Positions 48,915 to 64,000 of a DNA stretch of 64,000 nucleotides are shown in pieces. How positions within the stretch are numbered: the stretch's first letter is position 1; every line of letters begins with the position of its first letter. Source of the stretch: Myxococcaceae bacterium (GTDB taxonomy: Bacteria; Myxococcota; Myxococcia; Myxococcales; Myxococcaceae); assembly GCA_016793095.1 (NCBI GenBank), contig JAEUJQ010000035.1, forward strand, positions 186,001 through 250,000, read 5' to 3'. The position numbers and the translations under genes were made by a program. The notes beneath the pieces are model-generated. The model was not told where the DNA came from, made no database searches, and saw only the letters and a list, made by a program, of their open reading frames with translations.

Positions 48915-50125
48915 CGGGTGGATGCGTGCTGGAGCACCACGCCGAAGAAGCCGTCGGTGCCGTGGCGGTGCGGGAAGGTGCGCAGGGCGCCGTGCGCGTC
49001 GAGGAGCCCGGTGGGCAGTGGTGGGCGCACGCGGTGGAAGTCGGGGTGCGCGGAGAGGAAGGCGGCGACGACGTCGTCGTTCTCGTCGGAGCGCAGCGTG
49101 CAGGTGGCGTAGACGAGCGTGCCGCCGGGGACCAGGTGGCGCGCGGCGCTGTCGAGCAGCTCGCGTTGAAGGGGCGGCCAGCGGGAGAAGGCGGCCGGGT
49201 CGAGGCGCCAGCGCAGGTCGGGGCCGCGGCGGAGCGCGCCGAGCTCGGAGCACGGCGCGTCGATGAGGACGTGGTGCACGCGGAGGTCGGCGGGGAGCGC
49301 GTGGTGGATTCGAACGGTCGCGCCGGCGCGGGTCGCGCGGGTGCGCAGGCGCTCGAGGCGCTCGTGATCGACGTCGGTGGCGTGGAGGGTGACGTCGGTG
49401 GAGCGGGCGGCGAGCGCGAGGCTCTTGCCTCCCGCGCCGGCGCAGAGATCGAGCACCGACTCGCCGGGCCGCGCGACGACGAGCTGGGCGAGCAGCTGGC
49501 TGCCTTCGTCCTGGAGCTCGAAGAGGCCGTCGCGCCAGGCGCGGGTGGCGGTGAGGTTGGCGGGGCGGGTGGTGACGTGGAGCGCGTCGGGGCTGAAGCG
49601 GCCGGGCTCGGCGTCGCGGTGCTCGGCGGCGAGGAGGGCGCGCAGCGCGTCGCGGGTGCAGCGGGCGCGGTTGACGCGGACGGTGACGGGCCCGGGCACG
49701 TTGAGGGCGTCGGCGAGGGCTTCTGCCTCGGGGCCCACTGCGGCGAGGAGCGCGTCGGCGAGCCAGTCGGGCACCGAGGTGCGGTCGCGCCAGTCGGTGA
49801 GGGGGCGCGCGGGCGGAACGTCGACGCCGAGGAGGCGGGGCGCGTCGGCGGACCCTCCGAGGTCGCGCGCGAGGCAGGCAAGGAGCGCGAGCGGCGGGAG
49901 GTCGCCGACGTGCGCGCGCAGGCGACGGCGCCAGAGGCCCACGCCGAAGAGGGATTCCGAGGTGACCTGGCGCTGGGCGGCGGTGGAGGCCGGGTTCGCG
50001 CGGAGGAGGCGGTCGAGGACGTCGGCGGCCGAGGCGCCCGAGAGGATGGCGTCGAGGGCGGGCGCGAGCGTGGGAGCGAGGCCGTCGAGGGCCCGCCAGG
50101 GGATGTCGCGCAGCCGGGCGATCAT
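48911..50125 (-). CDS. RsmB/NOP-type class I SAM-dependent RNA (cytosine-5) methyltransferase
   Basis: A 404-aa RNA methyltransferase. The SAM-binding motif VLDLCAGAGGKSLALA, the catalytic Cys in IDAPCSELGALRRGPDLRW, and a second Cys in GTLVYATCTLRSDEND match the RsmB/Nop2 group. This group methylates C5 of cytosine in rRNA or tRNA. The N-terminal ~150 residues are helical, like the NusB-like extension of RsmB. The ATG at 50125 overlaps the HD gene stop (ATGA). The exact rRNA target cannot be read from sequence. Confidence 0.9.
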   Translation of the reverse strand: MIARLRDIPWRALDGLAPTLAPALDAILSGASAADVLDRLLRANPASTAAQRQVTSESLFGVGLWRRRLRAHVGDLPPLALLACLARDLGGSADAPRLLGVDVPPARPLTDWRDRTSVPDWLADALLAAVGPEAEALADALNVPGPVTVRVNRARCTRDALRALLAAEHRDAEPGRFSPDALHVTTRPANLTATRAWRDGLFELQDEGSQLLAQLVVARPGESVLDLCAGAGGKSLALAARSTDVTLHATDVDHERLERLRTRATRAGATVRIHHALPADLRVHHVLIDAPCSELGALRRGPDLRWRLDPAAFSRWPPLQRELLDSAARHLVPGGTLVYATCTLRSDENDDVVAAFLSAHPDFHRVRPPLPTGLLDAHGALRTFPHRHGTDGFFGVVLQHASTR

Positions 50126-50715
50126 TCGCGGCCGAGGGCGCGGCGCAGGTTGGCGCGGGCGGGCGCGTCGAGGCGCTCGTGGAAGTGGGCGGAGTGGAAG
50201 AGGCGCGGGGCCTCGAGGAGCTTCGAGAGGAAGCGCCGGCGACCGAGGCGGTAGAGGAGCGCGTTGGTGACGGGGCGGAACTCGTCGGCGATGGCGGCGT
50301 CGTAGGCGTCGAAGGTGGCGGGGTCGGCGCCGAGGATGGCCATGTCGGCGTCGAGGAAGTGGGCGGCGTCGGCGTCGGGGGGCGTGGCGGTGCCGTGCTT
50401 CGCGGTGAGGTCGATGAGGGTGCGCACGTACGCGACGTCGAGGCCAGCGCGCGGGAGGAAGGTGTCGATGGCCTGCGCGGCGAGCTCGGCCGACTTCGCC
50501 TCGTTGTCCTTGCGGCCGGGGACGTAGACGGCGTCGTGGAAGAGCGCCGCGAGGTAGACCTCGGCCGGGCGGGTCCACGAGGGGACTGTCGCCAGGTGGC
50601 GGAGGACTTCCTGCACGTGCGCGAAGGAGTGGTACGCGCGCGGGGGCGTGGCGTAGGCCGAGAGGAGCGCCCGCATGAGGCCTTCAGGGACGTCAATGGG
50701 GGCGAAGGGGGCCAT
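50122..50715 (-). CDS. HD-domain metal-dependent phosphohydrolase-like protein
   Basis: A 197-aa HD-superfamily protein similar to the COG4339 group. Metal ligands occur as AYHSFAHV (H), AALFHDAVY (HD pair) and a later Asp in LDADMAI. The helix VPGRKDNEAKSAELAAQA follows with NE/SA, matching family members. The function may be nucleotide or nucleotide-analogue hydrolysis. It is the first gene of a coupled operon with the RNA methyltransferase, divergent from the tRNA-Asn gene (55 nt apart). Confidence 0.85.
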   Translation of the reverse strand: MAPFAPIDVPEGLMRALLSAYATPPRAYHSFAHVQEVLRHLATVPSWTRPAEVYLAALFHDAVYVPGRKDNEAKSAELAAQAIDTFLPRAGLDVAYVRTLIDLTAKHGTATPPDADAAHFLDADMAILGADPATFDAYDAAIADEFRPVTNALLYRLGRRRFLSKLLEAPRLFHSAHFHERLDAPARANLRRALGRE

Positions 50716-51139: not shown

Positions 51140-52000
51140 CTACTTCTTCGACAACGCCCAGATCAGGCCGACCGCGAGCAGGCCCCCAAGAAGCAGCCCA
51201 GTCCCGTCGTCAGTCGAACTCGGAACGACCACGCTGGCTTCAGGGTTCGCCGAGACAGCGGACGCCTGCTCAGCTACCTGCCGCATCGCAGGCCTCGCCT
51301 CGGGCTGAACGGCGCACATGGCCCCCACGAGCGCCACAAAGCCGCCTGGAAGCGAATGGCCACCCAGGGTCAACGTCGTCCGCTGGCCAGTCAGCAGTTC
51401 GACGGCCACGACTCCCAGCGAGTAGACGTCACACGCATGCGTGAAGGATGCCCCCTTCAACAATTCCGGCGCGCGGTAGCCGTCGGTTCCCCAAGCGGTC
51501 CGCGTCATCAGTCCGGCCGTCTCTGGCTCTCGAGCGACCCCGAAGTCACCTACCTTGATCACAGCACCGGCCTGCGACGGGTGTCGCGCTACGAGAATGT
51601 TGTCGGGCTTGATATCGCGGTGGAAACCGCCCTGGGCGTGCAATGCCGTCAGCCCCGCTGCAGCCTGCGAAATCGCCATGGCAACCTCCCGCCACGGACG
51701 ACGGTTCTGAACCCAGGATCGAAGTGACCCGAACTGACAGAACTCCATGGCGATGAACGGCGGCACGTGGTCGAGACGGGCGTCCAAGACCTCGACAACG
51801 TTGGGATGCGCATAGTCTTGGAGCATCCGAGCTTCACGCCGGAAGCGCTCCGTCTGCGCCATGTTCGTCAGGAACTTGAGCGCGACTTCCCGGCCCGTCG
51901 ATTGATCGATCGCCGCGTAAACCGCGCCGAAAGCCCCATTGCCGATCGGCTGTACCGGTGCGTAGCGACCAGAAATCAGCTGCCCAATCCCGAGGTTCAT
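51140..52000 (-). CDS. Membrane-anchored Ser/Thr protein kinase, last gene of the MADS-like operon
   Basis: A 286-aa eukaryote-like kinase with all key residues: Gly loop G20-NGAFG-25, K42 (VALKF), E56, H127-R-D129 with N134 (HRDIKPDN), D152-F-G, and APE 177-179. It should be active. The C-terminus has one hydrophobic helix (residues ~267-283, LGGLLAVGLIWAL) and ends in SKK, so the kinase faces the cytoplasm from the inner membrane. ATG 52000 overlaps the stop of the ATPase gene as ATGA, so it is translated with it. The region is visibly less GC-rich than the flanking chromosome (37 of 60 bases G/C in 51901-51960). It is not part of the eight mad genes that I remember. Confidence 0.85.
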   Translation of the reverse strand: MNLGIGQLISGRYAPVQPIGNGAFGAVYAAIDQSTGREVALKFLTNMAQTERFRREARMLQDYAHPNVVEVLDARLDHVPPFIAMEFCQFGSLRSWVQNRRPWREVAMAISQAAAGLTALHAQGGFHRDIKPDNILVARHPSQAGAVIKVGDFGVAREPETAGLMTRTAWGTDGYRAPELLKGASFTHACDVYSLGVVAVELLTGQRTTLTLGGHSLPGGFVALVGAMCAVQPEARPAMRQVAEQASAVSANPEASVVVPSSTDDGTGLLLGGLLAVGLIWALSKK

Positions 52001-55000
52001 TTTTTCCCAGTCCCTGCGCCAACCGCCGTCTTGGTTGCGCCTCCATGGTGTGTGACGCGAGGGCGGCATCGAATCTTCACGGCGCCCTTCGTGAATGCGT
52101 CGTCGGTCGCCTTGCTAGACCAGATGAACGCTTCGCCCGGGCGCAGGTTCGACATCTTCTCGGGCGTGAGCGAGCCGAGCGCCGCGTTCGCCTTCTGAAT
52201 GTGCTTGAGCCAGGCGGGCGAGTTGAACTTGTGGAGGATGACCTGGCTGGAGAGCTCAATGAGCGAGATGGGCACCGAGGGCGGATCCTGGCTCGCGACC
52301 ATGATGCTCGTCCCCTTGTGGCGCATCTCGCGCACGACCTCGATAAGGCCGGCCACGAGGTCGGGGCTTTCGATGTACTTGTGGGCCTCGTCGAAGACGA
52401 CGAGCTTGTTGAACGAGTGCTCCGCGCCCTGCGCGTCGCGGTACTTGGCATCGGCGAAGAGTTGGAGGAGCACGACGAAGAGCCCCAGAGCTTCGTCCTT
52501 CTCGATGAACTCGTCGCGCAGGTCGACGATGATGAGACGGCCCGGGCGGATCTCGTCCTTCAGGCGAACCGAGTCGTCGATGTACTCGGCCGCTAGCTCA
52601 AGGCGCATCTTCGCCATGCCCTTGAGGTGATCGGCCAGCGATGAGGCCTCAATCCCTTGATTCAGCCCCTCGAGCGTGAGGTCGTCGCGCAGCGACTTCA
52701 TCACGCGATTGAGCTGGCGAATGTACGTAGCCTGGTTGCCCACCGCCCCCATGAGGAAGCGCCAGTGGCTGGTCTGTAGCTCGGCAGCACCGAACTTCAG
52801 CGGGCGCACCTCGATGTCCGGGTACTCTTGCTTGCGCTCGTCGAGCTTGTCCGCGGGCGCCAGAAGGAGGACGTCGGCGAGAGCGCGGGGCTCGGCGCCG
52901 AAGGTCTCCTTCAGCGCCTTCACCTGGGCGGCCTCGCTGTTCGGCGCGACCATCGACGTGAACTCCGGTCGGTAGTCCATCGTTGGGCTGTAGTGGAAGA
53001 TGACCGTCGCGAGCGGGTTCGGGAGGACGTTGATGTTCGGGATGGGCAGCGAGGCCATCTCCGCAATCGTGCCGAGCGTGTAGCTCTTGCCCCCGCCCTG
53101 GACGCCGAAGAGGCTGATGGTGTGCGTCTGGTTCAGGTCGATCGCGATGCGCCGGCCTGAGACGTCGCCGAGCAGCCCGTACTGGGGCGAGTCCCCGGTC
53201 ACGCCGAGCATGATGTCGTAGGGCACCGCGTGCGCGCTCTTCGCCTCCGGGCTCGGTGCGGGCGGTGGCACCTCCGCTGCCGGGGGCTCGGGAGGCCGCG
53301 CCACGGGCGCGACGTTGGCCACCGTGGCGGCCTTCGGCGGCGGCGCGACGGGCGGGGCCTCCGGCGCGGTGGGGCGCGCTACGGGCGTCACGACGGGCGT
53401 GGGCACGGCCTCCTGCGCGGCGACGGGCGTGTGCGGCGGGACGCTGGGCTGGCGGCCGCGCAGCTCCTCCCACGAGACCGAGCGATCGCGCGGAGAGCCA
53501 AGGAAGGCGGCCGAGTCGAGCGTCGGCACCGAGGGCGCGCGCTCGCGACGACGGCGAACCTCGCTGACACCGCGCGGGCGCGGTCCACCGCCACCGCCTG
53601 GTCCACCGCCCCCCGAGGAGCTGGCGCTGAGGCTCGCCGACGACTCGGTGCTGGGCGCGGCAGCGTCGACGAGCTGACGAATCAGGTCGACGCCGATGCG
53701 GTGGTACTCGATGCCGCTCTCGCTCTCGGGCGGCTCGGTTCCGGGCTTGGCGAAGTCGAAAATGAGAGCGCTGCGCGTGAACGCGAGCTGGTAGCCATCG
53801 TCGAGCGTATGAACAAAGTAGCGCGCCTCGTCGGCGGCCTCGCGGCTGATGGCTCCGTAGCGCTCGGCGCGCTCCAGGTAGAACTCGAGGAGCAGCGCAA
53901 GCTCGCGCGTCTTGAACGCGCGGTCCGGGCGGTCCTGGGGCGTACGCTTAGGATCGAAGTGGTGCGCGAGCACCTCCTCGCTCTGGCCGATCTGCTCGGC
54001 GATGCTCGACTTGAGCGCGTTGTAGGCAGCGAGGTCGCCGACGCCCGAGTAGCACTTCACCTCGACGAGGCGGCACGTGATGATGCGCCGGGTGGTGTCG
54101 AGATCGAAGAGCCCGAGGTCCGTGCGCTTGAAGCTGACCTCGTCGCCCAGCTCGTCGGCTCCCTGCTTCAGCACGCGGTACAGCTCGAGATGCGCGTCGA
54201 GCGGGACGACGATCTGGTTCTCGAAGACGCCCTGGTGTTCGAGGTAGAGGCGCGAGAGGGCCAGGCCCAAGGCTTCCGCCCGCTGCGTCGGCGACGAGAT
54301 GAGCTTCAGCGCGAGCCGGCCGGACAGCGACCGGAGCTGGTCGAGTAGCACCACGGCGTGGCGGCCCTCGGCCTGAAGCCCGTATTGCTCGAGGACCGGA
54401 CGCAGGAGCGCCTCGAGCTCAGCGACCGAACGGGACGTGATGACAAGCCGATGCCCCAACGTGCTCGCCATGTCCGGCGAGTGGTCGATGAGGTAATCCG
54501 GCCGCGTCGCGTGCCCGCCGTGGTCGAAAAACTCGATGCCGAGATTGCGGTCGAGCGTGAACACCCAGTCGCTCACCTCGTGAACCTGATGGAGAAGCGC
54601 ACGGTCGTCGGGACCGAGCGCCAGGCTCACGACGGGACGGAGGTCGATACCGCTCTGGCCAGTGGCGATGGTCGCTGTCGCGCTCGACATCGAGGCGGCG
54701 AGTTTGCCGAGCAGGTCGGAGAGTTCCTCTGCGTCTTCGATGGGCTGGGCCACGCCGTGGCGCGGGAGGCGGCGCCACGCAACGGTCAGCTCGTCCTCGT
54801 GGTACTCGGTCGAGAACTCCTGCACGAGGCCGTGAACGAACGCCGTCGCGTGGCGAGGATCGGACTTGCGCGCGCCAACTTCCTCGGCCGGGAAGACGTC
54901 GAAGAGCAGCGACAGGTGGGCCGCGTGGGTATCCGGGCTGATGCGGAAGTCCTTGGTCGAACGCACCGCGAAGCGCAGCTTCGGGTGAAGGTGCGTCTCG

Positions 55001-57570
55001 GCCGGAATGGAGAACGCGTCCGCTTCACGCGTGTTCGTGCCTCCATCAGGCGTGAGCAATGCGGCGATCTCGTCGCCGACCCCGGGCGCGTCGGGATCGG
55101 GCACGAAGAGCCGGATGTCGTAGCGAAGGTCGGCGAAGGCCGACTCCTTCTGCAGCTCGAGTAGCATGTCTCCGAGCACGCCAGCGCGGCCCGGATTGAA
55201 CGCGTTAATGGTCAGCGTGCGGACGTACGGGTGCTGCACGAGGTAGCGCCGCACGCGAGACGCGAGGTACTTGCCATCGATTAGCGCACCGCCGATGGCA
55301 GGCTCGGGCAGGCCCAGCGCACTGCAGACCTCGCCGACGAGGCCGCGAGGGTCCTCCTCGTTCGACGGCGCGAAGAGCGTCCAGAACGGGTTGATGCTGT
55401 CGACGGCGGTCAGCACGTGGCCCGCCTCCGTCGGCAGAACCGGCGGGAAGCTCGTTGGCGACAGCAGCTTCAGCAGCGCCTCGCGCGTCGGGACCACATA
55501 CTCCTGCGGCGCGCTCCTCGCGGCCGCAACCCACTGGGCGCCGAGCTTCGCCCACGTGGCAAACCACAACGCCCGCAGCGGGTGCGTGGGCGCTACGAGG
55601 ACGGCGTCGCGGCGACGACCACGGTGATCGACGATGGCGAGAAGCACGGAGTCGAGCGCGAGGATCTTGCGCAGGTCTGCGAAAGCCCGCTGCGAGTCGC
55701 TCTTCGCCGTCGCTTCCGCTCGCTGGGCTAGGTCCGCCAGCAGCGCGAGATAAGCACCCGCGTAATCGCTCGCGAGATCGGTGTTCGCCCCAGCGTCGAC
55801 GCCCTGCGTGACCAACTCCGAGGTGCCGCTCCGTACCGCCGCGAAGTAGCGGGTACGCGCTTCAAGGAAACGATCGCCAGCGGCGCCCTGCGGCCAGCCG
55901 TTGACCTCACCGGTGCTCGTCCCCGGCACGCCGTGATTCACCGGGATGCGCCAGCTAATCGGACCGTCGGGCGCAGCGAGGATCTTCTGCTCGATGTTCT
56001 TGAGTGCGCGAGAGACCGGCACATGCACCGCGCCCTCGCGTCCAAGCTTCACCTCCAGCATGTCGGCACCGGAGACATGCCCCTTGGTCTTCTCTGCCCA
56101 CGCGGCGTGCCCGAAAACGACGCTCGTCGGATCGCGGTCGTCGAGAATGGCCTTGAACTGCGCACGGAAGAGGGCGTGCAACGCGCTCGGCTCGCGCTGC
56201 ACGGCACGCTGCGCGGGCTCGATTTCCACCTCGGTGTCAGGCAGGACATAAAACAGATCGCTCTCGTTTGGCCGGGGCGCTGTCTCGTCCGCGTCTGCGC
56301 TCCACGCGACGGCATCGCCGTTCGCGTCGACGAGCGGAATGAGATCCCCGCTCTCGGTCTGCGCGAGGAGCCGAATGAAGTGCCAGCCCTCTTCCCAGTC
56401 GATCTTGCCGAGCGCCGAGAACGAGATTGTCGCCTTGTCAGTCGCCGTCTTCCACACGGCCTTGCTGCGGGCGAGACCGATGGGACCATGTTCCTTGGAG
56501 ATGACCTGCGCGACGAACTTCGCGAGGCCCTGCACCTTGCTCGGGTGCGGCTCCGTGCGGAACGTGACGTTGAACTTCTTGAGGTTGCTGACCGGCAGAA
56601 TGCACTGCCCGATGAGCTGCGCGAGCGGCTCCTTGGTCTCGTCGCCGGCGACCTTCGGTAGGTCCGTCTGCACCTCGCCGACAAAGATGGCGTCAGGTTG
56701 GACGCCGCCGTCTTCGAACTCCCACTTGTTGAAGGCGAGCTGCCAGAGCGCCTTGTCGACGACGATGCGGCGCGCCCACTGGCGCGGGTCGTCTGTGCCC
56801 GCCTCGGCGAGGAAGTTGCCAAGTAGGTTCTTGAAGGCGCGCTTGGAGAGCCCCAGTTCACCCACGCGACCGCGCTCCGATCGCGGCGACCAGGTCAGCT
56901 TCTCGACGCTCTCGCGGTTGCGCACGAGGCGGGTCGGGGCCTTCTCTGGCTGCACCAGCCACTCGAAGTCGGGCACCAACCCCACCTCGTAGAGCGACGC
57001 TCCGAGCGCCTCGCCGTCGTTGCCGTTCACCTTCGCCGTCAGGAGAAAGCGCACCGTCGAGAGCGCATCCGCGAAACGCCACGAACGCTCACCACCACGC
57101 TGCCGTCGGAGCGACTCATGGACGCCACCACGTAGCGTTGAAGGCAGCTCGCCGAGTAGCTTCTCGATGAGCGCCTCGTAAAGGCCGGTGACCGAGACCT
57201 CCTCGAACGTCGCCACGCCGAAAGAGTCCTCGGCCGAAGCGCGTACGTCGCTGGGAACAAACACGAGGAGCGGCGGGCGCTGGGTGCCGTCGGCGTGGGG
57301 ATTGCGCAGCTCGACGAGTTTCGTGCTCGACACCGCGAGCTCGGCGGGGATGCTCAGCTTACCGTCGGTGAGAACCACGACCGTCGTGTTGGGCAGCTCG
57401 GCGCGAAGCCGCGCGCAGAGCCGCACCATCAGCTCGGCGTCGAGGTCGCTCACGCGCATGCAGTGACCGGCCACGCGTGTGCGGAGCTGCTCGACGAGCA
57501 ACGGCACGGCGACGTTCTCCAGCTCGTTGGTGAGATGCGTCGTGGACAGCTCCTGGAACCCAGCGCTCAC
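51997..57570 (-). CDS. MAD8-like ATP-binding protein (HerA/DUF87-type ATPase fusion)
   Basis: An 1857-aa protein starting at GTG 57570, preceded by AGGAGGAACGCC. The C-terminal ~400 residues form a HerA/FtsK-like ATPase: Walker A GVQGGGKSYTLG near 1490, Walker B LVVFDEAHKYI near 1727, and arginine-rich GTSIMVASQDPPSV. The region before (~1310-1450) is a Gly/Pro/Ala linker. Around 1155-1170 lies a possible PD-(D/E)xK nuclease element (FDLDTTRRIITCRLVEVKCY). The N-terminal ~1100 residues are unrecognised. Gene order with the neighbours and the architecture match MAD8 of the methylation-associated defence system as I remember it. No search was run. Its stop overlaps the kinase ATG. Confidence 0.82.
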   Translation of the reverse strand: MSAGFQELSTTHLTNELENVAVPLLVEQLRTRVAGHCMRVSDLDAELMVRLCARLRAELPNTTVVVLTDGKLSIPAELAVSSTKLVELRNPHADGTQRPPLLVFVPSDVRASAEDSFGVATFEEVSVTGLYEALIEKLLGELPSTLRGGVHESLRRQRGGERSWRFADALSTVRFLLTAKVNGNDGEALGASLYEVGLVPDFEWLVQPEKAPTRLVRNRESVEKLTWSPRSERGRVGELGLSKRAFKNLLGNFLAEAGTDDPRQWARRIVVDKALWQLAFNKWEFEDGGVQPDAIFVGEVQTDLPKVAGDETKEPLAQLIGQCILPVSNLKKFNVTFRTEPHPSKVQGLAKFVAQVISKEHGPIGLARSKAVWKTATDKATISFSALGKIDWEEGWHFIRLLAQTESGDLIPLVDANGDAVAWSADADETAPRPNESDLFYVLPDTEVEIEPAQRAVQREPSALHALFRAQFKAILDDRDPTSVVFGHAAWAEKTKGHVSGADMLEVKLGREGAVHVPVSRALKNIEQKILAAPDGPISWRIPVNHGVPGTSTGEVNGWPQGAAGDRFLEARTRYFAAVRSGTSELVTQGVDAGANTDLASDYAGAYLALLADLAQRAEATAKSDSQRAFADLRKILALDSVLLAIVDHRGRRRDAVLVAPTHPLRALWFATWAKLGAQWVAAARSAPQEYVVPTREALLKLLSPTSFPPVLPTEAGHVLTAVDSINPFWTLFAPSNEEDPRGLVGEVCSALGLPEPAIGGALIDGKYLASRVRRYLVQHPYVRTLTINAFNPGRAGVLGDMLLELQKESAFADLRYDIRLFVPDPDAPGVGDEIAALLTPDGGTNTREADAFSIPAETHLHPKLRFAVRSTKDFRISPDTHAAHLSLLFDVFPAEEVGARKSDPRHATAFVHGLVQEFSTEYHEDELTVAWRRLPRHGVAQPIEDAEELSDLLGKLAASMSSATATIATGQSGIDLRPVVSLALGPDDRALLHQVHEVSDWVFTLDRNLGIEFFDHGGHATRPDYLIDHSPDMASTLGHRLVITSRSVAELEALLRPVLEQYGLQAEGRHAVVLLDQLRSLSGRLALKLISSPTQRAEALGLALSRLYLEHQGVFENQIVVPLDAHLELYRVLKQGADELGDEVSFKRTDLGLFDLDTTRRIITCRLVEVKCYSGVGDLAAYNALKSSIAEQIGQSEEVLAHHFDPKRTPQDRPDRAFKTRELALLLEFYLERAERYGAISREAADEARYFVHTLDDGYQLAFTRSALIFDFAKPGTEPPESESGIEYHRIGVDLIRQLVDAAAPSTESSASLSASSSGGGGPGGGGGPRPRGVSEVRRRRERAPSVPTLDSAAFLGSPRDRSVSWEELRGRQPSVPPHTPVAAQEAVPTPVVTPVARPTAPEAPPVAPPPKAATVANVAPVARPPEPPAAEVPPPAPSPEAKSAHAVPYDIMLGVTGDSPQYGLLGDVSGRRIAIDLNQTHTISLFGVQGGGKSYTLGTIAEMASLPIPNINVLPNPLATVIFHYSPTMDYRPEFTSMVAPNSEAAQVKALKETFGAEPRALADVLLLAPADKLDERKQEYPDIEVRPLKFGAAELQTSHWRFLMGAVGNQATYIRQLNRVMKSLRDDLTLEGLNQGIEASSLADHLKGMAKMRLELAAEYIDDSVRLKDEIRPGRLIIVDLRDEFIEKDEALGLFVVLLQLFADAKYRDAQGAEHSFNKLVVFDEAHKYIESPDLVAGLIEVVREMRHKGTSIMVASQDPPSVPISLIELSSQVILHKFNSPAWLKHIQKANAALGSLTPEKMSNLRPGEAFIWSSKATDDAFTKGAVKIRCRPRVTHHGGATKTAVGAGTGKK

Positions 57571-59252
57571 GGCGTTCCTCCTGTGGCCGTGTCGCCCTCG
57601 GCGATGCGGAATCTCGGCGTGATGGTCTGCGTGACGTAGGCGTCGGAGAGATCGCGGTAGAAGCCGACCTCGCGAAGCCGCCCGGTGAACGCGCGGACGT
57701 TGTCGCGTAGCGCACGACGGTCCTCGATACTGGTCGTCGCGAAGCCATCACCGCGCGGCAACTGGTCGATGAAGATGCCGTAGCGCTCACGCAAGAACAC
57801 GAGCAGCTCGTCAACGCGCATCTCGCCCGTGTGAAAGCCGCCGTCCGTACCCTGCTTCAGCACAGCGATCTGGAGCAGCACCTCGAGCAGCCGGCTGTCG
57901 AGGACGAAGCGGCGAGGCGCCTCCTTCGTTCGGCCCTGCGCGATGAGCGCGCCGGCGCGGTTCTTCAAGAGGAGTGAGTCGAGGCACTGCGTGACGTACT
58001 TGCGGTGGAACGGACCACGCAGCGCGACGATCATCTCGATGTATGCGTCGAACTCCGAGAGGCCCATCTCGGTGACGGCCTTCACCTCGGGGTCGAGCTC
58101 GGCGTCCTTCGCGCCCGACGTCTCTTCCACGAGGCCCGACACGCGCTGGCCGAAGAACTTCTCGCGCTCGGCCTTCAGCGGCGCGTCGAGGAGCTGCAGC
58201 ACCTCTCCCACCGAGAATTCGCCGCTGGTCGGCTTCGTGAGCTTGCCCCGACGAACGAGATCTGTGGCGAACTCGTCGAGCTTCTTGGTCGCGAAGTACG
58301 CTCGCAAGAAGCCCGGGATGCGCCGGTAGTGCGTGTCGGCGCTGCGTTCAGCGAGCGTAGCCATCGGAGTACCGGGCTGGCCTGCGACATCGACCAGCAG
58401 GCCCACGCGGTACGGGCAGTCGCCGAACGGGTTCTCCAGGCTCTTGGGGTTCATCGGGCACGCGCCCGTCGCGCACGTTGGATCAGCACCCTTCCTGCGA
58501 ACCAGCGCTGGCAGGAGCTTTAAGAGGCGCAAGTGATAGAGCCCGAGGTGGAAGGCGATGAGCACCTTCAGGTACTCGACCATCACCGAGCGCGGGATGA
58601 AGCGCTGGTAGAACAGCAGGCGCTGGATGTCCTCGGCGAGGAGATCGGCGGCCCCTACGCAGAGGGGCGAAAACGAATCGCGCCCCGACTTCGTGTCCGG
58701 CGCATCTCCCTTCACCTCGTCAAGGAGTCGAAGCAGCGCCTGGGTCTCGACGTCGATCACCGCTCCCGCGTTGGCCTTGCCCGTGACCTTGTCGTGGCCC
58801 TGGAAGAAGAAGTGGTGCAGGTGCTCGAGTGCCTTCTGCCCGGCGCCTTTCCGCGCCATGTAGAGCATCTCGTACAGGTGCTGCGCAGCGCCGTAGTCGC
58901 GCGAGTGCTTCGGGTTGCGGAAGCGGTACGTGAACCCGTGGAGCGGGCGCGGCGCTGCCAGGGCCTCGTTCGCCTTACCTCGGTTCACGAGGTCGAGAAG
59001 ATGCGTCTCGACCCAGCGGCGGACGACGTCGGGGTTGTCCTGGAACTTCGTGAACCACTCGGGGTGCTCGAAGGTAAACTCGACGAAGGCGTCGACGCTG
59101 AGTTCGAAGTTGCGTGTCAGGCGGCTCGGGTAGCCGTTGTGCGCGAGCCGCGCGAAGAACGCGGTGAGCACGCGGTCCATCTCGAGGTGCTTGAAGTCGA
59201 GGTAGCTGATCTTCGGGAGCCGGAACTCTCGATCGCGCTTGGACAGTGACAT
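57567..59252 (-). CDS. MAD7-like protein of the methylation-associated defence system
   Basis: A 561-aa soluble protein without a domain I can name. The ATG at 59252 overlaps the preceding stop by one base (TGATG), and the stop overlaps the GTG of the ATPase (GTGA), so it is translated as part of the operon. The N-terminal half is helical (FTFEHPEWFTKFQDNPDVV, HLYEMLYMARKGAGQKALEHLHHFFFQGHDK). A Cys cluster near residues 257-277 (CATGACPMNP, then GDCPYR) could bind zinc or an Fe-S centre. The C-terminal region has winged-helix-like character (ELLVFLRERYGIFIDQLP). Position between the kinase-like and ATPase genes is the basis for MAD7. Confidence 0.75.
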   Translation of the reverse strand: MSLSKRDREFRLPKISYLDFKHLEMDRVLTAFFARLAHNGYPSRLTRNFELSVDAFVEFTFEHPEWFTKFQDNPDVVRRWVETHLLDLVNRGKANEALAAPRPLHGFTYRFRNPKHSRDYGAAQHLYEMLYMARKGAGQKALEHLHHFFFQGHDKVTGKANAGAVIDVETQALLRLLDEVKGDAPDTKSGRDSFSPLCVGAADLLAEDIQRLLFYQRFIPRSVMVEYLKVLIAFHLGLYHLRLLKLLPALVRRKGADPTCATGACPMNPKSLENPFGDCPYRVGLLVDVAGQPGTPMATLAERSADTHYRRIPGFLRAYFATKKLDEFATDLVRRGKLTKPTSGEFSVGEVLQLLDAPLKAEREKFFGQRVSGLVEETSGAKDAELDPEVKAVTEMGLSEFDAYIEMIVALRGPFHRKYVTQCLDSLLLKNRAGALIAQGRTKEAPRRFVLDSRLLEVLLQIAVLKQGTDGGFHTGEMRVDELLVFLRERYGIFIDQLPRGDGFATTSIEDRRALRDNVRAFTGRLREVGFYRDLSDAYVTQTITPRFRIAEGDTATGGTP

Positions 59253-62200
59253 CAGACCGCTCCCTCTTGGGCGCGCGTCATCTCGAGGCGGCCATCGGCT
59301 TGGCGAGCGACGCGGTAGAAGTCATGGCCCGACGTGCTGAGCAGCACCTCCTGGTAGGGCGCAGAGCCGAGCAAGTTCTTGAAGACCGCGAGGCTCAGGT
59401 AGTAGCCCTGCTCCTCCTCGACGCTTGGGCGGTAGCCCTCGTTCAGGCGCCGGAGCATCTCGTAGACGTCGAGCGAGACGAGCAGCTCCGCATCGAGACC
59501 CGCAGAGTCGTGGTAGCGAAGTAAGAGCCCCGTGGGCATGTGTTCGACGAAGCGCGAGCGCGAGGCATGGTCGTTCAGCGACACAGAGAAGCGCTCGCGC
59601 GGGTAGAGCCGGTAGGAGCGCACGCTGCCACCTTCGACGCGGCGAACCTCCAACGCGAGGTTGTTACCGATGCGCTCAGGCCGCGTGAGCCCCTCGCCTC
59701 GGTTGATGGCGACGAGCAGCGGCTCGAGCAGCCCCTCGGCGCCCTTGTCGCCGCGCACCACCGCGAGCAGCTCGTCGGCGGTCTTGTACGGGAGCATCGA
59801 GCGCCAGCCCGCGTCACGCCGCTCGAAGAACGCGCGCCTGCGCGCCATCGCGATGAAGCGCCGGTGCGAATCGGCGCGATGCTCGCTTGCCTTGCCCGAG
59901 ACGTCACGCGGCAGCTCGTCGTAGAGGCTGCGGAGGATCTCGCGGTCGTAGGCGCCGCGCTGCTCGAATCGGAACAGCGTGCGGTCCTCGGTGGGCGAGA
60001 CGAAGTCGAGCGCGCGGTCGAGGCGCGGATCGTCGGCCGCCGCGACGTCGACCTCGGAGAGCAGCGTAAGCAGGCGATCGGCGTTGGGGGCGTCGCCGCC
60101 TTTCCAACTGTTGAAGTAGAAGCCCTGCACGATCTCGTTGCGCTGGCCGTTCTTGTACAGCGCGTGGATCTCATCGCAGTCGCGCGTGCCCACCAGCATG
60201 TACGCGAGCGCCGAGCGCAAATCGCGCAGCGTGATGTGCAGGCGCCCGCGCAGGTGCGTGATGGCGTAGAGGCTCTTCAGTCTTTCGACGACGTGCTTCC
60301 CCGCGGTCTCGTCCTGGATGGTCTGCGCGTTGTGGAACGCGTAGCAGCGGTCCTTCAGGTCGCAGCCATGGCAGGGCTCCCAGAACTTCTCATGCGTCAT
60401 GCGGTTCACGAGACGCTCGAGGATCGAGTTGTCGAAGCCTTGCGGGTCGACGACGACGCTGCGGAGATTCAAGTTCACGACGGCCACGCCATCGGTGGGC
60501 TCGCCCGTGCGGAGTCCCTCCTTCACCAGCGTGGCGAGCGCGGGAAAGTCTGCGCGGTTCGCCTCGAGGAAGTCGACGAGGCGCCCCTCGTTGATGGCGA
60601 TGAGTCGCGTCTCCTTCGTCGCTGCCCATCCCTTCGAGTCGTTGCCCTTGAAGGGGGCGAGGAAGGCGCGCAGCACATCGTCGTTCTTCTGGTCGCCCTC
60701 GTCCTGGCTGCCGTCGTAGTTCGAGAGGAACGTGCGCCCGCGCAGCTCAATGCGTGCGCCGTTCGGCAGCGAGTGGTCGACGGTGGCCTGTTCGTCGGCA
60801 GCCCTCCGTTCTAGCTTCTGCAGGAAGGCCGTCTTCCCATCGCCTGCATTGCCAGAAATGATGACGAGCGCGAATTCACCGGAGAGCACTGACGGCAGCA
60901 GCTCACGGTCGAGCGCGGTCTCGACATAGGTCTGCTCACTGATGACATCGAGGCCGCGCGTGCCCGCGTTGCTGTGCTTGCTCTGGCTGTAGACCGTGAG
61001 CAGATGGCGGACGTACGGGTTCGTGTTCGGAGGGATCGCTCCACCCGAGCCGCCGTTCCCGTTGCCATTGCGCTTGCCGTTTCCGCCGTCTCCCGGCACG
61101 CCCCACGCGATCGGCACCGGTGTGAGGGGCTGCGGCGCACGCCGCGCCGCCGGAATGCTGGTCAACGCGCTCCGCAGGTCGGCGGCGGATGCATAGCGGT
61201 CTGCACGCTTGGGCGCGATGGCCTTGAGCATCACGTCGACCAACTCGGGCGCGATGTCGGCGAGGCCCGACAGCTCGCGCGGATCGGCGGCGGGCTTGCC
61301 TGGCGGCGGGACCTGCGCGTTGTCCCACGGGTAGCGGCTCGTCATCGCCTCGTAGAGCGTGAGCCCAAGCGCGTAGAGATCACGATCGACGAGATCGCTT
61401 GCCGAAGGAACGTCCTCAAGCACGAGGTCGGGCGGCAGGTAGCGACGCGAGCCGCCGCCACGGCGCTCCTCGTCCTTCGCCGCGACCGATACGTTGAAGT
61501 CGATGATCTTCGTGCCGCGCCCAGTCCACAACAGGTTTCGAGGCTTGATGTCGCAGTGGTAGACGCCGTGCTCGTGCAGGTGCACGAGGCCTGTCGCGAC
61601 GTGCCGCCCGAGCTCGAGCGCGTCTTCGCGGGTCAGCGCGTTGCTCTCGATCATCTCGCCGACGTCAAAGCCCTCGATGAACTCGAAGACGATGAAGGGA
61701 GGACCGCCGGGGATGAGATCGGCGTCGATCACCTTCACCACGTTCTGGTGGTCGGGGATCTGAAGGAGCGTCTTGTACTCCTTCTTGAGGCGGTCGACCG
61801 TAGACACGCGGTCGCGCAACACCAGCTTCACAGCGCGCGAAACGTCGCCGAGCGTGTCGATGACCTTGTACGCGACCGCGAACGAGCCCGGCTTGCCGAG
61901 CCGCTTCTCGATGACGTACTTCGGCGTGAGCTGGGTGTTCGCGAGCAGGTTTGAGTAATCGAGCTGAGGCGCGGCGGGCTCGGCTGACGACGCCGATGGA
62001 GCCGCGCCGACTGCAGGCGCAGAGGCGGCGCTGGGGTCGAGGAGGATCTTCAGCTCGGTGAGTGCCCACGCCGCCGAGGGCCGATCGCCTGGCTCGAAGG
62101 TGCAGAGCTTCTGCAGCCAGGCGTCGAAGCCCGTGGGCAGCTCGGGGCGCGCAGAGCTGGGCTTCACCGCGAAGACGGCCTTCTGCTCGAACAGCTCGGT

Positions 62201-63421
62201 CGGCGTCTTGAACGGCCGCTCACCCGTGAACAGCTCGTAGAGCACGAGGCCAACGCTGAAGAGATCCGAGGCAGGCGTCGCGGCGGCGGGCTCGCCGTGG
62301 ATCTCGGGCGCCATGTACTTGGGCTCGAGGTCGTCGACGATCTCCTGCGCGATGGTGCGGCTGTGGTCGGTGCCCGGGCGCGCGAAGTCGAATCCTGTCA
62401 GCCGCATGCGGCCGTCGCTGCCGACGAGGATGTTCGCGGGCGAGATGTTGCGGTGAACGACCTTGTGCTGCGCAAGGTGGACGAGCGCGCTCAGGAGGTC
62501 GCCAGCGACGGTATTCTTCTGGTCGAGCGTGAGCGCAAGGGTGGGCTTGGCGATGTGGACGCGCAGCGCCTGCCCGGCGACGTCCTCGGTGACCAGGAAG
62601 TACTTGTCCTCGGCCTCGCTCGGGAAGAAGTCGCGCACGCCGACAATGCCCGGGTGGCCCGGCGTGGTGCTGAGCGTGCGGAACGCCGTCGAGATGAGGA
62701 GCTTCTGCTTCTCGCGCTCGTCCGGCGGCCTGTACGGGTCGGCCTGGTAGGCGCGGATGAGCGCCGTCGACTTCGGCCCCGCAAAGGCGTTGTGCGCGCG
62801 GTACTCGGTGTAGCTGTCGGTGCCACCCAGCCGCTCGGAGACCACCCAGCTCCCGAAGCGCAGCGGACCCGAGCGCGGCCTCGCTACGCCCTGCAGCGCC
62901 TTCATGATGATGTTGTGGTGCGCGCCGATGTTCTTCGATTTGCCGGCAGGGATGCGCGCCGCGTTCTGGAAGAAGGCCGTTGCTTTCTTGAGCGTGGTGA
63001 CATTCGGGGCGTCGCGCCCGCCCGGATCGGCCAGCGTGGCGTCAGGGGCCGTGAGCACGACGGCGGCGTCGACGTAGATGTCGTCGAGGTCGCGGCGTCC
63101 GGGCTGGCTGCCGGTGATGATGCCCTTCACCGCCTTGGCGTGCCCGCGCAGCTTGGCGAGCGGCGAGCTGAAGGCTTGGCGCCCCTCCGGGTACCACTTG
63201 GAGCCGTAGACATCGATAAGGCCGCGTGTGCCCTTCACGTCGACGAGGAAGACGGCGTGCGGCGCGATGATCGCGACGTCGACCTCGAAAGTCTCGCCGT
63301 CGCGCACGATCTCGAAGTTGTGCAGGATGAGGTAGCTCGCCGGCAGATGATCCCGCAGGGTAGCGATGGCCTGGCGCTCGGCCTCGTTCACCGGCTCGCC
63401 GATGGGAATCACCGTGGCCAT
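59252..63421 (-). CDS. MAD6-like multidomain protein: NERD + two kinase folds + P-loop NTPase
   Basis: A 1389-aa protein. Domains in order: NERD nuclease-related (~15-110; FEVDVAIIAPHAVFLVDVKG gives the D...DxK motif); first kinase fold (~225-500) with HRN in place of HRD (HRNISPANILV) and no usual VAIK Lys, so probably a pseudokinase; linker; second kinase fold (~555-800) with HCDIKPRN (HCD near 622), DFN in place of DFG, and AVK lysine, so activity is possible; Gly/Asn linker; P-loop region (~830-1389) with Walker A GNAGDGKT near 860 and Cys motif CHGCDLKDRCYAFH near 1020. Its ATG at 63421 overlaps the upstream stop by one base. Architecture corresponds to the protein kinase MAD6. Confidence 0.85.
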   Translation of the reverse strand: MATVIPIGEPVNEAERQAIATLRDHLPASYLILHNFEIVRDGETFEVDVAIIAPHAVFLVDVKGTRGLIDVYGSKWYPEGRQAFSSPLAKLRGHAKAVKGIITGSQPGRRDLDDIYVDAAVVLTAPDATLADPGGRDAPNVTTLKKATAFFQNAARIPAGKSKNIGAHHNIIMKALQGVARPRSGPLRFGSWVVSERLGGTDSYTEYRAHNAFAGPKSTALIRAYQADPYRPPDEREKQKLLISTAFRTLSTTPGHPGIVGVRDFFPSEAEDKYFLVTEDVAGQALRVHIAKPTLALTLDQKNTVAGDLLSALVHLAQHKVVHRNISPANILVGSDGRMRLTGFDFARPGTDHSRTIAQEIVDDLEPKYMAPEIHGEPAAATPASDLFSVGLVLYELFTGERPFKTPTELFEQKAVFAVKPSSARPELPTGFDAWLQKLCTFEPGDRPSAAWALTELKILLDPSAASAPAVGAAPSASSAEPAAPQLDYSNLLANTQLTPKYVIEKRLGKPGSFAVAYKVIDTLGDVSRAVKLVLRDRVSTVDRLKKEYKTLLQIPDHQNVVKVIDADLIPGGPPFIVFEFIEGFDVGEMIESNALTREDALELGRHVATGLVHLHEHGVYHCDIKPRNLLWTGRGTKIIDFNVSVAAKDEERRGGGSRRYLPPDLVLEDVPSASDLVDRDLYALGLTLYEAMTSRYPWDNAQVPPPGKPAADPRELSGLADIAPELVDVMLKAIAPKRADRYASAADLRSALTSIPAARRAPQPLTPVPIAWGVPGDGGNGKRNGNGNGGSGGAIPPNTNPYVRHLLTVYSQSKHSNAGTRGLDVISEQTYVETALDRELLPSVLSGEFALVIISGNAGDGKTAFLQKLERRAADEQATVDHSLPNGARIELRGRTFLSNYDGSQDEGDQKNDDVLRAFLAPFKGNDSKGWAATKETRLIAINEGRLVDFLEANRADFPALATLVKEGLRTGEPTDGVAVVNLNLRSVVVDPQGFDNSILERLVNRMTHEKFWEPCHGCDLKDRCYAFHNAQTIQDETAGKHVVERLKSLYAITHLRGRLHITLRDLRSALAYMLVGTRDCDEIHALYKNGQRNEIVQGFYFNSWKGGDAPNADRLLTLLSEVDVAAADDPRLDRALDFVSPTEDRTLFRFEQRGAYDREILRSLYDELPRDVSGKASEHRADSHRRFIAMARRRAFFERRDAGWRSMLPYKTADELLAVVRGDKGAEGLLEPLLVAINRGEGLTRPERIGNNLALEVRRVEGGSVRSYRLYPRERFSVSLNDHASRSRFVEHMPTGLLLRYHDSAGLDAELLVSLDVYEMLRRLNEGYRPSVEEEQGYYLSLAVFKNLLGSAPYQEVLLSTSGHDFYRVARQADGRLEMTRAQEGAV

Positions 63422-64000
63422 CAGTTCGTGGCTCCCTTCTCTATGGCGTGCTCGACCTTCTTGGTCGCCGAGCGGACACTCGCGGACGCCTCGTCTTCGA
63501 GCTTCCACGATTCGAGAACGGGCTCGGCGATCCGCTTGCGAACTGCGCTCGACGGCCAAGGCAGGCGAAGTGCCCCAATGTGTGCCGGATCCAGCTGAGG
63601 GATCGAACTGCCGAAGGCGTTTCGCGTGATCGCTCGGTACCCGTGCGGCGACGACAGCACCACGGAGAGGTAGGCGGCAGTCTCCGCGTCTTCGGGAGCG
63701 ATGCGCATCAGATGGTTGGACACGACCGACTTATCAACAGCAGGCGTAGCCCTCACGAGTCGACCGATGAGTCCTTCGAGCTGGCCAGCGTCCTGAATGA
63801 GGAGCCAGTTCTCGCGGACGATGTAGTCCTCGATCTTCGGCGCACGGCGGCTGAGGTGACCGCGCGGCTCTGGGTCGTACTGGAATAGCTCGGTGCCCGA
63901 GAAGTACGGATAGCCGTAGCTCGGGTCATCGACGTGGATGCGTTTGAAGATCCCCGGCGTGAACACCCGCGCTACTTCGTCGAGCCGCTTTGTGTCGCCA
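63421..64000 (-). CDS. HsdS-like specificity subunit (MAD5-like), 5' end beyond window
   Basis: The last 192 codons of a gene that enters from the right edge. The frame is open across base 64000 (GDTKRLDEVARVFTPGIFKR), so the N-terminus is missing. The visible region resembles the C-terminal target recognition half of a type I restriction specificity subunit: YFSGTELFQYDPE, KIEDYIVRENWLLIQDAGQLEGLIGRLV, the AYLSVVLSSPHGYRAITRNAFGSSIPQLDPAHIGALRLPWP core, and a terminal helix (KRIAEPVLESWKLEDEASASVRSA) suited to a coiled coil. In MADS an S-like protein directs methylation by the methyltransferase MAD2. TGATG links it to the next gene. Confidence 0.8.
   Translation of the reverse strand, partial: GDTKRLDEVARVFTPGIFKRIHVDDPSYGYPYFSGTELFQYDPEPRGHLSRRAPKIEDYIVRENWLLIQDAGQLEGLIGRLVRATPAVDKSVVSNHLMRIAPEDAETAAYLSVVLSSPHGYRAITRNAFGSSIPQLDPAHIGALRLPWPSSAVRKRIAEPVLESWKLEDEASASVRSATKKVEHAIEKGATN

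What the first reader, a model, noticed from the sequence alone, without database searches (positions are those of the whole stretch)
59252..63421. Pseudokinase and active-like kinase fused to a NERD domain and P-loop
The first kinase fold shows HRN in place of HRD and lacks the usual VAIK lysine, whereas the second keeps the AVK lysine and HCD/DFN. Fusion of both to an N-terminal NERD nuclease-like domain and a C-terminal NTPase with Cys-rich CHGC/CYAFH element gives a single 1389-aa sensor-like protein. Pairing of inactive and active kinase folds is reminiscent of regulated kinases (e.g. JAK-type), and it is rarely discussed for bacteria.
Basis: partly seen in the sequence, partly recalled or inferred. 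Interest (0 to 1): 0.7.

Follow-up and report, generated by a model that had tools for sequence, protein, structure and literature searches.

The report
MAD6 pseudokinase–kinase of MADS phage defence
This is the MAD6 protein of a known bacterial anti-phage system (MADS), in which a dead kinase, a live kinase and a nuclease-like domain are fused to a DndF-type sensor; the dead kinase is real and conserved, but the arrangement has been described before.

Summary
The 1389-aa protein at 59252-63421(-) is MAD6 of a MADS operon (NCBIfam NF047741, 781 bits, cut-off 460). MAD2-MAD5 lie upstream, MAD7 and MAD8 downstream.

Kinase fold 1 is a true, conserved pseudokinase. Among 16 full-length MAD6 proteins its VAIK lysine is Arg in 15 and Gln in 1. 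HRN is kept in 13, with HRA in 1 and HRD in 2 distant ones. Fold 2 keeps every catalytic residue checked in 16 of 16. Both model as kinases.

The architecture is in print: NERD + inactive + active kinase + P-loop core with Zn insert is a DndF variant (PMC10853773), and PglW carries the same N-terminal trio (PMC12839542). The 'Cys-rich NTPase' is the DndF/SspF core.

Added here: (1) a tree groups MAD6-K1 with PglW-K1 and MAD6-K2 with PglW-K2, so the tandem probably predates both systems; (2) MAD6-7-8 read as a DndFGH-type effector, with conserved nuclease and HerA/FtsK motifs in MAD8, although a held review calls MADS restriction 'unknown'; (3) some operons couple an extra kinase or PP2C phosphatase to mad8. 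JAK-like control is untested.

The parts
59252..63421 (-). mad6: 1389-aa NERD–pseudokinase–kinase–DndF core protein
63050..63388 (-). NERD (PD-(D/E)xK nuclease-related) domain, residues 12-124; E46, D48, D61 (D/E) and K63 conserved
   Evidence: Pfam NERD; 16 of 16 keep E46, D48, D/E61, K63
61997..62872 (-). K1 pseudokinase, about residues 184-475; R223 for VAIK Lys, HRN 323-325, GFD 343-345
61127..61942 (-). K2 active-like Ser/Thr kinase, about residues 494-765; K532, E548, D624, D641
60092..61021 (-). DndF/SspF-type P-loop core with lid, about residues 801-1110
   Evidence: PADLOC SspF 850-1239; hhalign 96.9%, E 1.3e-10 against an SspF
60824..60853 (-). Walker A GNAGDGKTAF, residues 857-866
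   Evidence: identical in 16 of 16
60332..60373 (-). Cys element CHGCDLKDRCYAFH (residues 1017-1030), the probable Zn-chelating insert of the lid
   Evidence: three Cys in 16 of 16; aligned Cys also in SspF of L041; Zn insert named in PMC10853773
59255..60091 (-). C-terminal part of the DndF-like core, residues 1111-1389; fold not resolved here
   Evidence: poor model
57567..59252 (-). mad7 (SspG/DndG-like), 561 aa
   Evidence: NF047733 692 bits, cut-off 410; SspG 8.4e-07; hhalign 54.9%, E 1.2e-4
51997..57570 (-). mad8 (DndH/SspH-like), 1857 aa, with D1151…E1170-V-K1172 nuclease motif and HerA/FtsK ATPase (GVQGGGKS, FDEAH)
   Evidence: NF047742 230.7 bits, cut-off 175
51140..52000 (-). accessory Ser/Thr kinase, 286 aa, catalytic motifs intact, hydrophobic C-terminal tail; its ATG overlaps the mad8 stop (ATGA)
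63421..63999 (-). mad5 (HsdS-type specificity subunit), C-terminal part; the rest and mad4, mad3, mad2 lie beyond the window in L022

Best explanation
The protein is MAD6 of a MADS operon (mad2 to mad8 seen). It is a DndF-type subunit carrying an N-terminal NERD–pseudokinase–kinase trio. SHOWN by sequence: the family, operon and domain order; loss of K1's catalytic residues and retention of K2's; intact NERD and P-loop motifs; MAD7 and MAD8 resembling DndG/SspG and DndH/SspH. INFERRED: MAD2 with MAD5 methylates host DNA at specific sites. MAD6-7-8 form a DndFGH-like complex that inspects incoming DNA (MAD7) and nucleotides or phage factors (the MAD6 P-loop core). The constrained pseudokinase K1 docks on and gates K2 or the NERD domain. 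K2 phosphorylates itself or its partners when infection is sensed, which licenses the MAD8 nuclease/HerA motor, with NERD as an additional or backup nuclease. The extra coupled kinase here, and the PP2C phosphatase in two Bacteroidota operons, would set or reset the phosphorylation state.
For: MAD5-8 models and mad2-5 in L022. Catalytic residue counts over 16 proteins. Kinase folds for both domains: VIA Z 25.5 (K1 against PknB 5u94) and 25.6 (K2 against PknA 4x3f). dN/dS of K1 0.085-0.29 in 8 of 8 pairs tested, so K1 is under constraint. DndF core: hhalign 96.9%, E 1.3e-10. MAD8 D1151, E1170, K1172, Walker A and B residues checked in 16 of 16. Two Bacteroidota operons with PP2C overlapping mad8. 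Published precedent: PglW K677A (K2 lysine) abolishes autophosphorylation and phage resistance (PMC4365076).
Against: No experiment on this protein. No phosphorylation target is known, and no K1-K2 interface was shown: model confidence is low (mean pLDDT 58.9, pTM 0.40, NERD under 50). A Nonomuraea protein has NERD + K1 with no K2 and no mad6-C, mad7 or mad8 match within the 25-kb locus, so K1 can exist without the kinase it is supposed to gate, unless that is a remnant. MAD7/SspG and MAD8/SspH similarity is moderate (hhalign 55% each). Rakesh et al. instead propose the fused kinases as co-effectors.
Confidence: 0.6

Rival explanations
1. Backup-effector model (Rakesh et al.): NERD and the kinases are occasional add-ons to DndF that act as suicide co-effectors when the main restriction fails; K1 is only a scaffold or decoy and does not regulate K2.
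For: Stated for DndF in PMC10853773. SspF in L041 lacks kinases and NERD altogether (630 aa), so the core works without them elsewhere. NERD and K1 occur without K2 in L025.
Against: All 16 full-length MAD6 proteins keep the trio, so in MADS it is not occasional. A coupled PP2C (L026, L027) points to reversible signalling. In PglW the K2 lysine is needed for resistance itself.
Confidence: 0.3
2. K1 is a catalytically competent atypical kinase and not a pseudokinase.
For: Two of 16 relatives keep HRD, 3 of 16 keep the DFG aspartate and 12 of 16 keep the catalytic-loop Asn.
Against: No row of 16 has the VAIK Lys (15 Arg, 1 Gln), none of 8 PglW K1 domains has it either, and 0 of 8 keep HRD Asp or DFG Asp.
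Confidence: 0.05
3. K1 is decaying by drift and has no function.
For: K1 is less constrained than K2 in 6 of the 8 pairs tested.
Against: dN/dS well under 1 in all 8 pairs tested, K1 kept in 16 of 16, and the same Arg substitution shared with PglW.
Confidence: 0.03

Closest known systems
MAD6 of MADS (Maestri et al. 2024, Cell Host Microbe; paper not held, known here through NCBIfam/PADLOC models and citations)
   Same: Above the curated cut-off; operon order mad5-6-7-8 and mad2-4 upstream.
   Different: An extra kinase gene is translationally coupled behind mad8 here. mad1 was not identified.
Kinase-bearing DndF of DndFGH (Rakesh, Aravind, Krishnan 2024, PMC10853773)
   Same: NERD, tandem inactive and active S/T/Y kinases, P-loop core with Zn insert, neighbours like DndG and DndH.
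   Different: Partnered with a methyltransferase and specificity subunit rather than Dnd phosphorothioation genes. 'MADS' does not occur in the text of that paper.
PglW of BREX type 2 / Pgl (PMC12839542, PMC4365076)
   Same: Same N-terminal trio; K1 with K1 and K2 with K2 in the tree; Arg at the VAIK-Lys site in 8 of 8.
   Different: C-terminal half unlike: triple wHTH and inactive STAND in PglW, DndF core in MAD6. NCBIfam PglW scores 186 against a cut-off of 990.
JAK (JH2 pseudokinase–JH1 kinase; domain names recalled)
   Same: Pseudokinase before kinase in one chain; top Foldseek rows.
   Different: No evidence of common arrangement or descent; TM 0.26-0.27. Ser/Thr-type K2, prokaryotic relatives.

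Membership tests
MADS / MAD6 | MAD6 protein model above curated cut-off | tested here: met
   NF047741 781.3 bits, cut-off 460
MADS / MAD6 | mad7 and mad8 adjacent, above cut-off | tested here: met
   NF047733 692.4/410; NF047742 230.7/175
MADS / MAD6 | mad2-mad5 upstream | tested here: met
   PADLOC mad2, mad3, mad4, mad5 in L022 (the methylase scores higher with a Type II MTase model)
MADS / MAD6 | mad1 | tested here: inconclusive
   Only one ORF upstream of mad2 was scanned (L022:6152-6586), no match; the contig ends soon after
MADS / MAD6 | phage restriction with host methylation | not testable with these tools
   needs experiment
DndF (DndFGH/SspFGH) | P-loop core with Walker A, lid and RDL motif | tested here: met
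   PADLOC SspF 92.5 bits; hhalign 96.9%
DndF (DndFGH/SspFGH) | DndG-like and DndH-like neighbours | tested here: met
   Moderate: SspG 8.4e-07, DndH 1.2e-4; hhalign 54.9% and 55.0%; SspH itself hits mad8 at 5.5e-22, HerA part
DndF (DndFGH/SspFGH) | linked phosphorothioation genes | not tested
   None named among the genes examined next to the operon; genome not searched. PMC10853773 says the module is often decoupled from them
PglW (BREX type 2) | full-length PglW model | tested here: not met
   NF033442 186 bits, cut-off 990; matches only residues 15-760
JAK-type regulation | pseudokinase lacking catalytic residues, N-terminal to an intact kinase | tested here: met
JAK-type regulation | pseudokinase restrains the kinase through a defined interface | not testable with these tools
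   model confidence too low between domains

The most novel reading that the evidence does not exclude
NERD–pseudokinase–kinase is one ancient exchangeable phospho-switch cassette. Its K1 was inactivated (Lys to Arg) before MADS and Pgl/BREX type 2 split, and it was then plugged onto unlike sensor/effector halves (DndF core; wHTH-iSTAND). K1 allosterically gates K2, K2 licenses the MAD8 nuclease-motor, and coupled kinase or PP2C genes tune it: a prokaryotic immune analogue of JAK-like control.
Probability: 0.25. Interest if true: 0.6.

Novelty: new member of a known kind. Interest (0 to 1): 0.3.

Why it matters
A held 2026 review counts MADS among systems that restrict 'by unknown mechanisms' (PMC12904381). 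Reading MAD6-7-8 as a DndFGH-type module with a conserved nuclease site and HerA motor in MAD8 makes the effector directly testable. The K1/K2 tree points to a shared, old pseudokinase whose regulatory role can be tested in two systems at once. The pseudokinase itself is not a surprise to specialists.

Tried and rejected
Rejected: K1 inactivation as a recent random change (conserved). JAK homology (ranks reflect two kinase folds in tandem). Separate kinase duplications within MAD6 or within PglW (AU p 0.012 and 0.036; long branches remain a caveat, and p values share the model's pull). One clade of all K1 and K2 domains is not rejected (p 0.41).

Led nowhere: structure of the C-terminal 610 residues (mean pLDDT 48.7); PDB sequence search of that part (only weak nucleoporin rows); phages, viral contigs and E. 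coli genomes gave no match; paper search for MAD6/MAD7/MAD8 names gave none; Maestri 2024 is not held. The listed VIA-align rows mostly covered 181-466, so the NERD part was barely tested by fold.

For the tree, 11 of the 16 MAD6 were used, all 8 PglW, and 10 other kinases. For dN/dS 8 chosen pairs, not all 120. Genes behind mad8 were listed for 14 loci plus the window (L021 not); only those of L014, L015, L017, L026 and L027 were family-searched.

Full report
WHAT IS THERE. The reading frame 59252-63421 on the minus strand encodes 1389 aa. Pfam finds NERD (12-124) and two protein kinase domains. PADLOC and NCBIfam name it MAD6 of the methylation-associated defence system, at 781 bits (NCBIfam) against a cut-off of 460. 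Next to it are MAD7 (57567-59252) and MAD8 (51997-57570), both above cut-off, and on the other side MAD5. The window cuts MAD5; the rest of the contig (L022) carries MAD5, MAD4, MAD3 and MAD2. The mad5/6, mad6/7, mad7/8 and mad8/kinase junctions overlap by 1 to 4 bases. The genome has 85 matches to the mad6 kinase model; one covers nearly the whole model and the rest match at most its kinase part, so the pairing with NERD and the operon, not the kinase count, defines it.

THE TWO KINASES. I aligned 16 full-length MAD6 proteins: the window, nine from the genome-contig scan (ten loci, of which L018 is partial), two from Myxococcota genomes and four from plasmids. Identities to the window run from 86% down to 28%. 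K1: the VAIK lysine is Arg in 15 and Gln in 1 of 16. The HRD aspartate is Asn in 13, Ala in 1, Asp in 2. The DFG aspartate is Gly in 10, Asp in 3, Asn in 3. K2: Lys532, Glu548, Asp624, Lys626, Asn629, Asp641, Phe642 and Asn643 are in 16 of 16. So HRN is ancestral in the near group, and even the two HRD-bearing relatives (L024, L026) lack the lysine. NERD residues E46, D48, D/E61 and K63 are in 16 of 16. K1 evolves under constraint: dN/dS 0.085-0.29 in the 8 pairs tested, against 0.045-0.23 for K2.

FOLDS. An AlphaFold2 model of residues 1-785 (10 sequences) has mean pLDDT 58.9, with K1 and K2 as the better parts and NERD under 50. Foldseek's first two rows are full-length JAK, aligned over both kinases but with TM 0.26-0.27 (query) and rmsd 23-29; then single bacterial kinases. 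VIA-align 2 gives Z 25.5 for K1 against PknB (5u94; rmsd 2.8, 255 aligned) and 25.6 for K2 against PknA (4x3f; rmsd 2.8, 251 aligned). The C-terminal model is poor.

THE C-TERMINAL HALF. PADLOC matches residues 850-1239 to SspF (92.5 bits). A bona fide SspFGH operon from another genome of the phylum (L041; SspF, SspG, SspH at 1.4e-247, 2.8e-218 and 0) has a 630-aa SspF with no PADLOC kinase match. Profile comparison with it gives 96.9%, E 1.3e-10, aligning Walker A, the Cys element and the RDL motif. Weaker matches join MAD7 to SspG (54.9%, E 1.2e-4) and MAD8 to SspH (55.0%, E 1.2e-4). In 16 of 16 MAD8 proteins D1151, E1170, K1172 (a PD-(D/E)xK-type pattern; motif name recalled) and the HerA-type Walker A and B residues checked are kept; the SspH row aligns one column off there. 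I conclude that MAD6-7-8 is a DndFGH-type module. In the held library the only paper with the words MADS, phage, DndFGH and defense system lists them as separate systems (PMC12904381, passages); Maestri 2024 itself was not readable, so I cannot say the link is unpublished.

PRIOR ART. PMC10853773 (abstract, section 12 and passages read) describes DndF variants with NERD and 'tandem inactive and active copies' of S/T/Y kinase before the P-loop core, and a Zn-chelating insert in the lid. PMC12839542 (passages) gives PglW the same trio. PMC4365076 (passages) shows that the PglW second-kinase lysine is needed for autophosphorylation and resistance. So every element of the finding has a published counterpart.

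ORIGIN OF THE PAIR. In a maximum-likelihood tree of 48 kinase domains (11 MAD6 and 8 PglW proteins, both domains, plus 10 other kinases) MAD6-K1 and PglW-K1 share a branch at 100/99, and MAD6-K2 and PglW-K2 one at 88/83. Separate duplication inside MAD6 (AU p 0.012) or inside PglW (p 0.036) is rejected. Arg replaces the VAIK lysine in 8 of 8 PglW K1 domains too. The simplest reading is one tandem, already with an inactive first copy, before MADS and Pgl parted. Long-branch attraction between fast-evolving pseudokinases is the main doubt; shared order with NERD argues against it.

HOW IT MIGHT WORK. See Best explanation. Shown: parts and conservation. Inferred: sensing, gating, phosphorylation, nuclease licensing. 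Supporting hints are an intact extra kinase gene overlapping mad8 here, and PP2C phosphatase genes overlapping mad8 in two of the 15 loci whose next genes I listed (L026, L027; only five of those loci were family-searched). The same-genus locus L014 has a CD-NTase there instead, so these are accessory. A result against strict cis-gating is the Nonomuraea protein with NERD and a K1-like pseudokinase only (R, HRA, GFD; 473-aa frame) and no other MAD part found in its 25 kb.

VERDICT. Observation confirmed, explanation mostly known. New member of a known kind; interest 0.3.

Noticed in passing
window 51140-52000 (-): Intact Ser/Thr kinase with a hydrophobic C-terminal tail, start codon overlapping the mad8 stop (ATGA). 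A 48% identical kinase lies upstream of MADS in same-genus locus L014 (2725-3681, -).
   Followed up: partly
L026 16118-16783; L027 16022-16684: PP2C phosphatase genes overlapping the mad8 stop in two Bacteroidota plasmid MADS operons. L026 has only a methylase and an S subunit annotated before mad6, no mad3 or mad4.
   Followed up: partly
L025 11926-13347: Nonomuraea protein with NERD plus K1-like pseudokinase alone (473-aa frame), no K2, mad7 or mad8 match in the 25-kb locus: a standalone NERD-pseudokinase or a remnant.
   Followed up: partly
window 50122-50715 (-) and L014 23336-23923: The gene next to the MADS island looks by eye like the same gene in both same-genus loci, with different cargo between (extra kinase here, CD-NTase in L014): a likely shared defence hotspot.
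   Followed up: no
L011, L012, L013, L016 against the window: MAD6 at 81-83% identity in beta- and alphaproteobacteria, close to the 83-86% seen among myxobacteria, suggests recent horizontal spread.
   Followed up: no
L017 21288-23213: A gene matching the PADLOC Orf5/SspE models directly follows mad8 in a Desulfobulbaceae locus.
   Followed up: no
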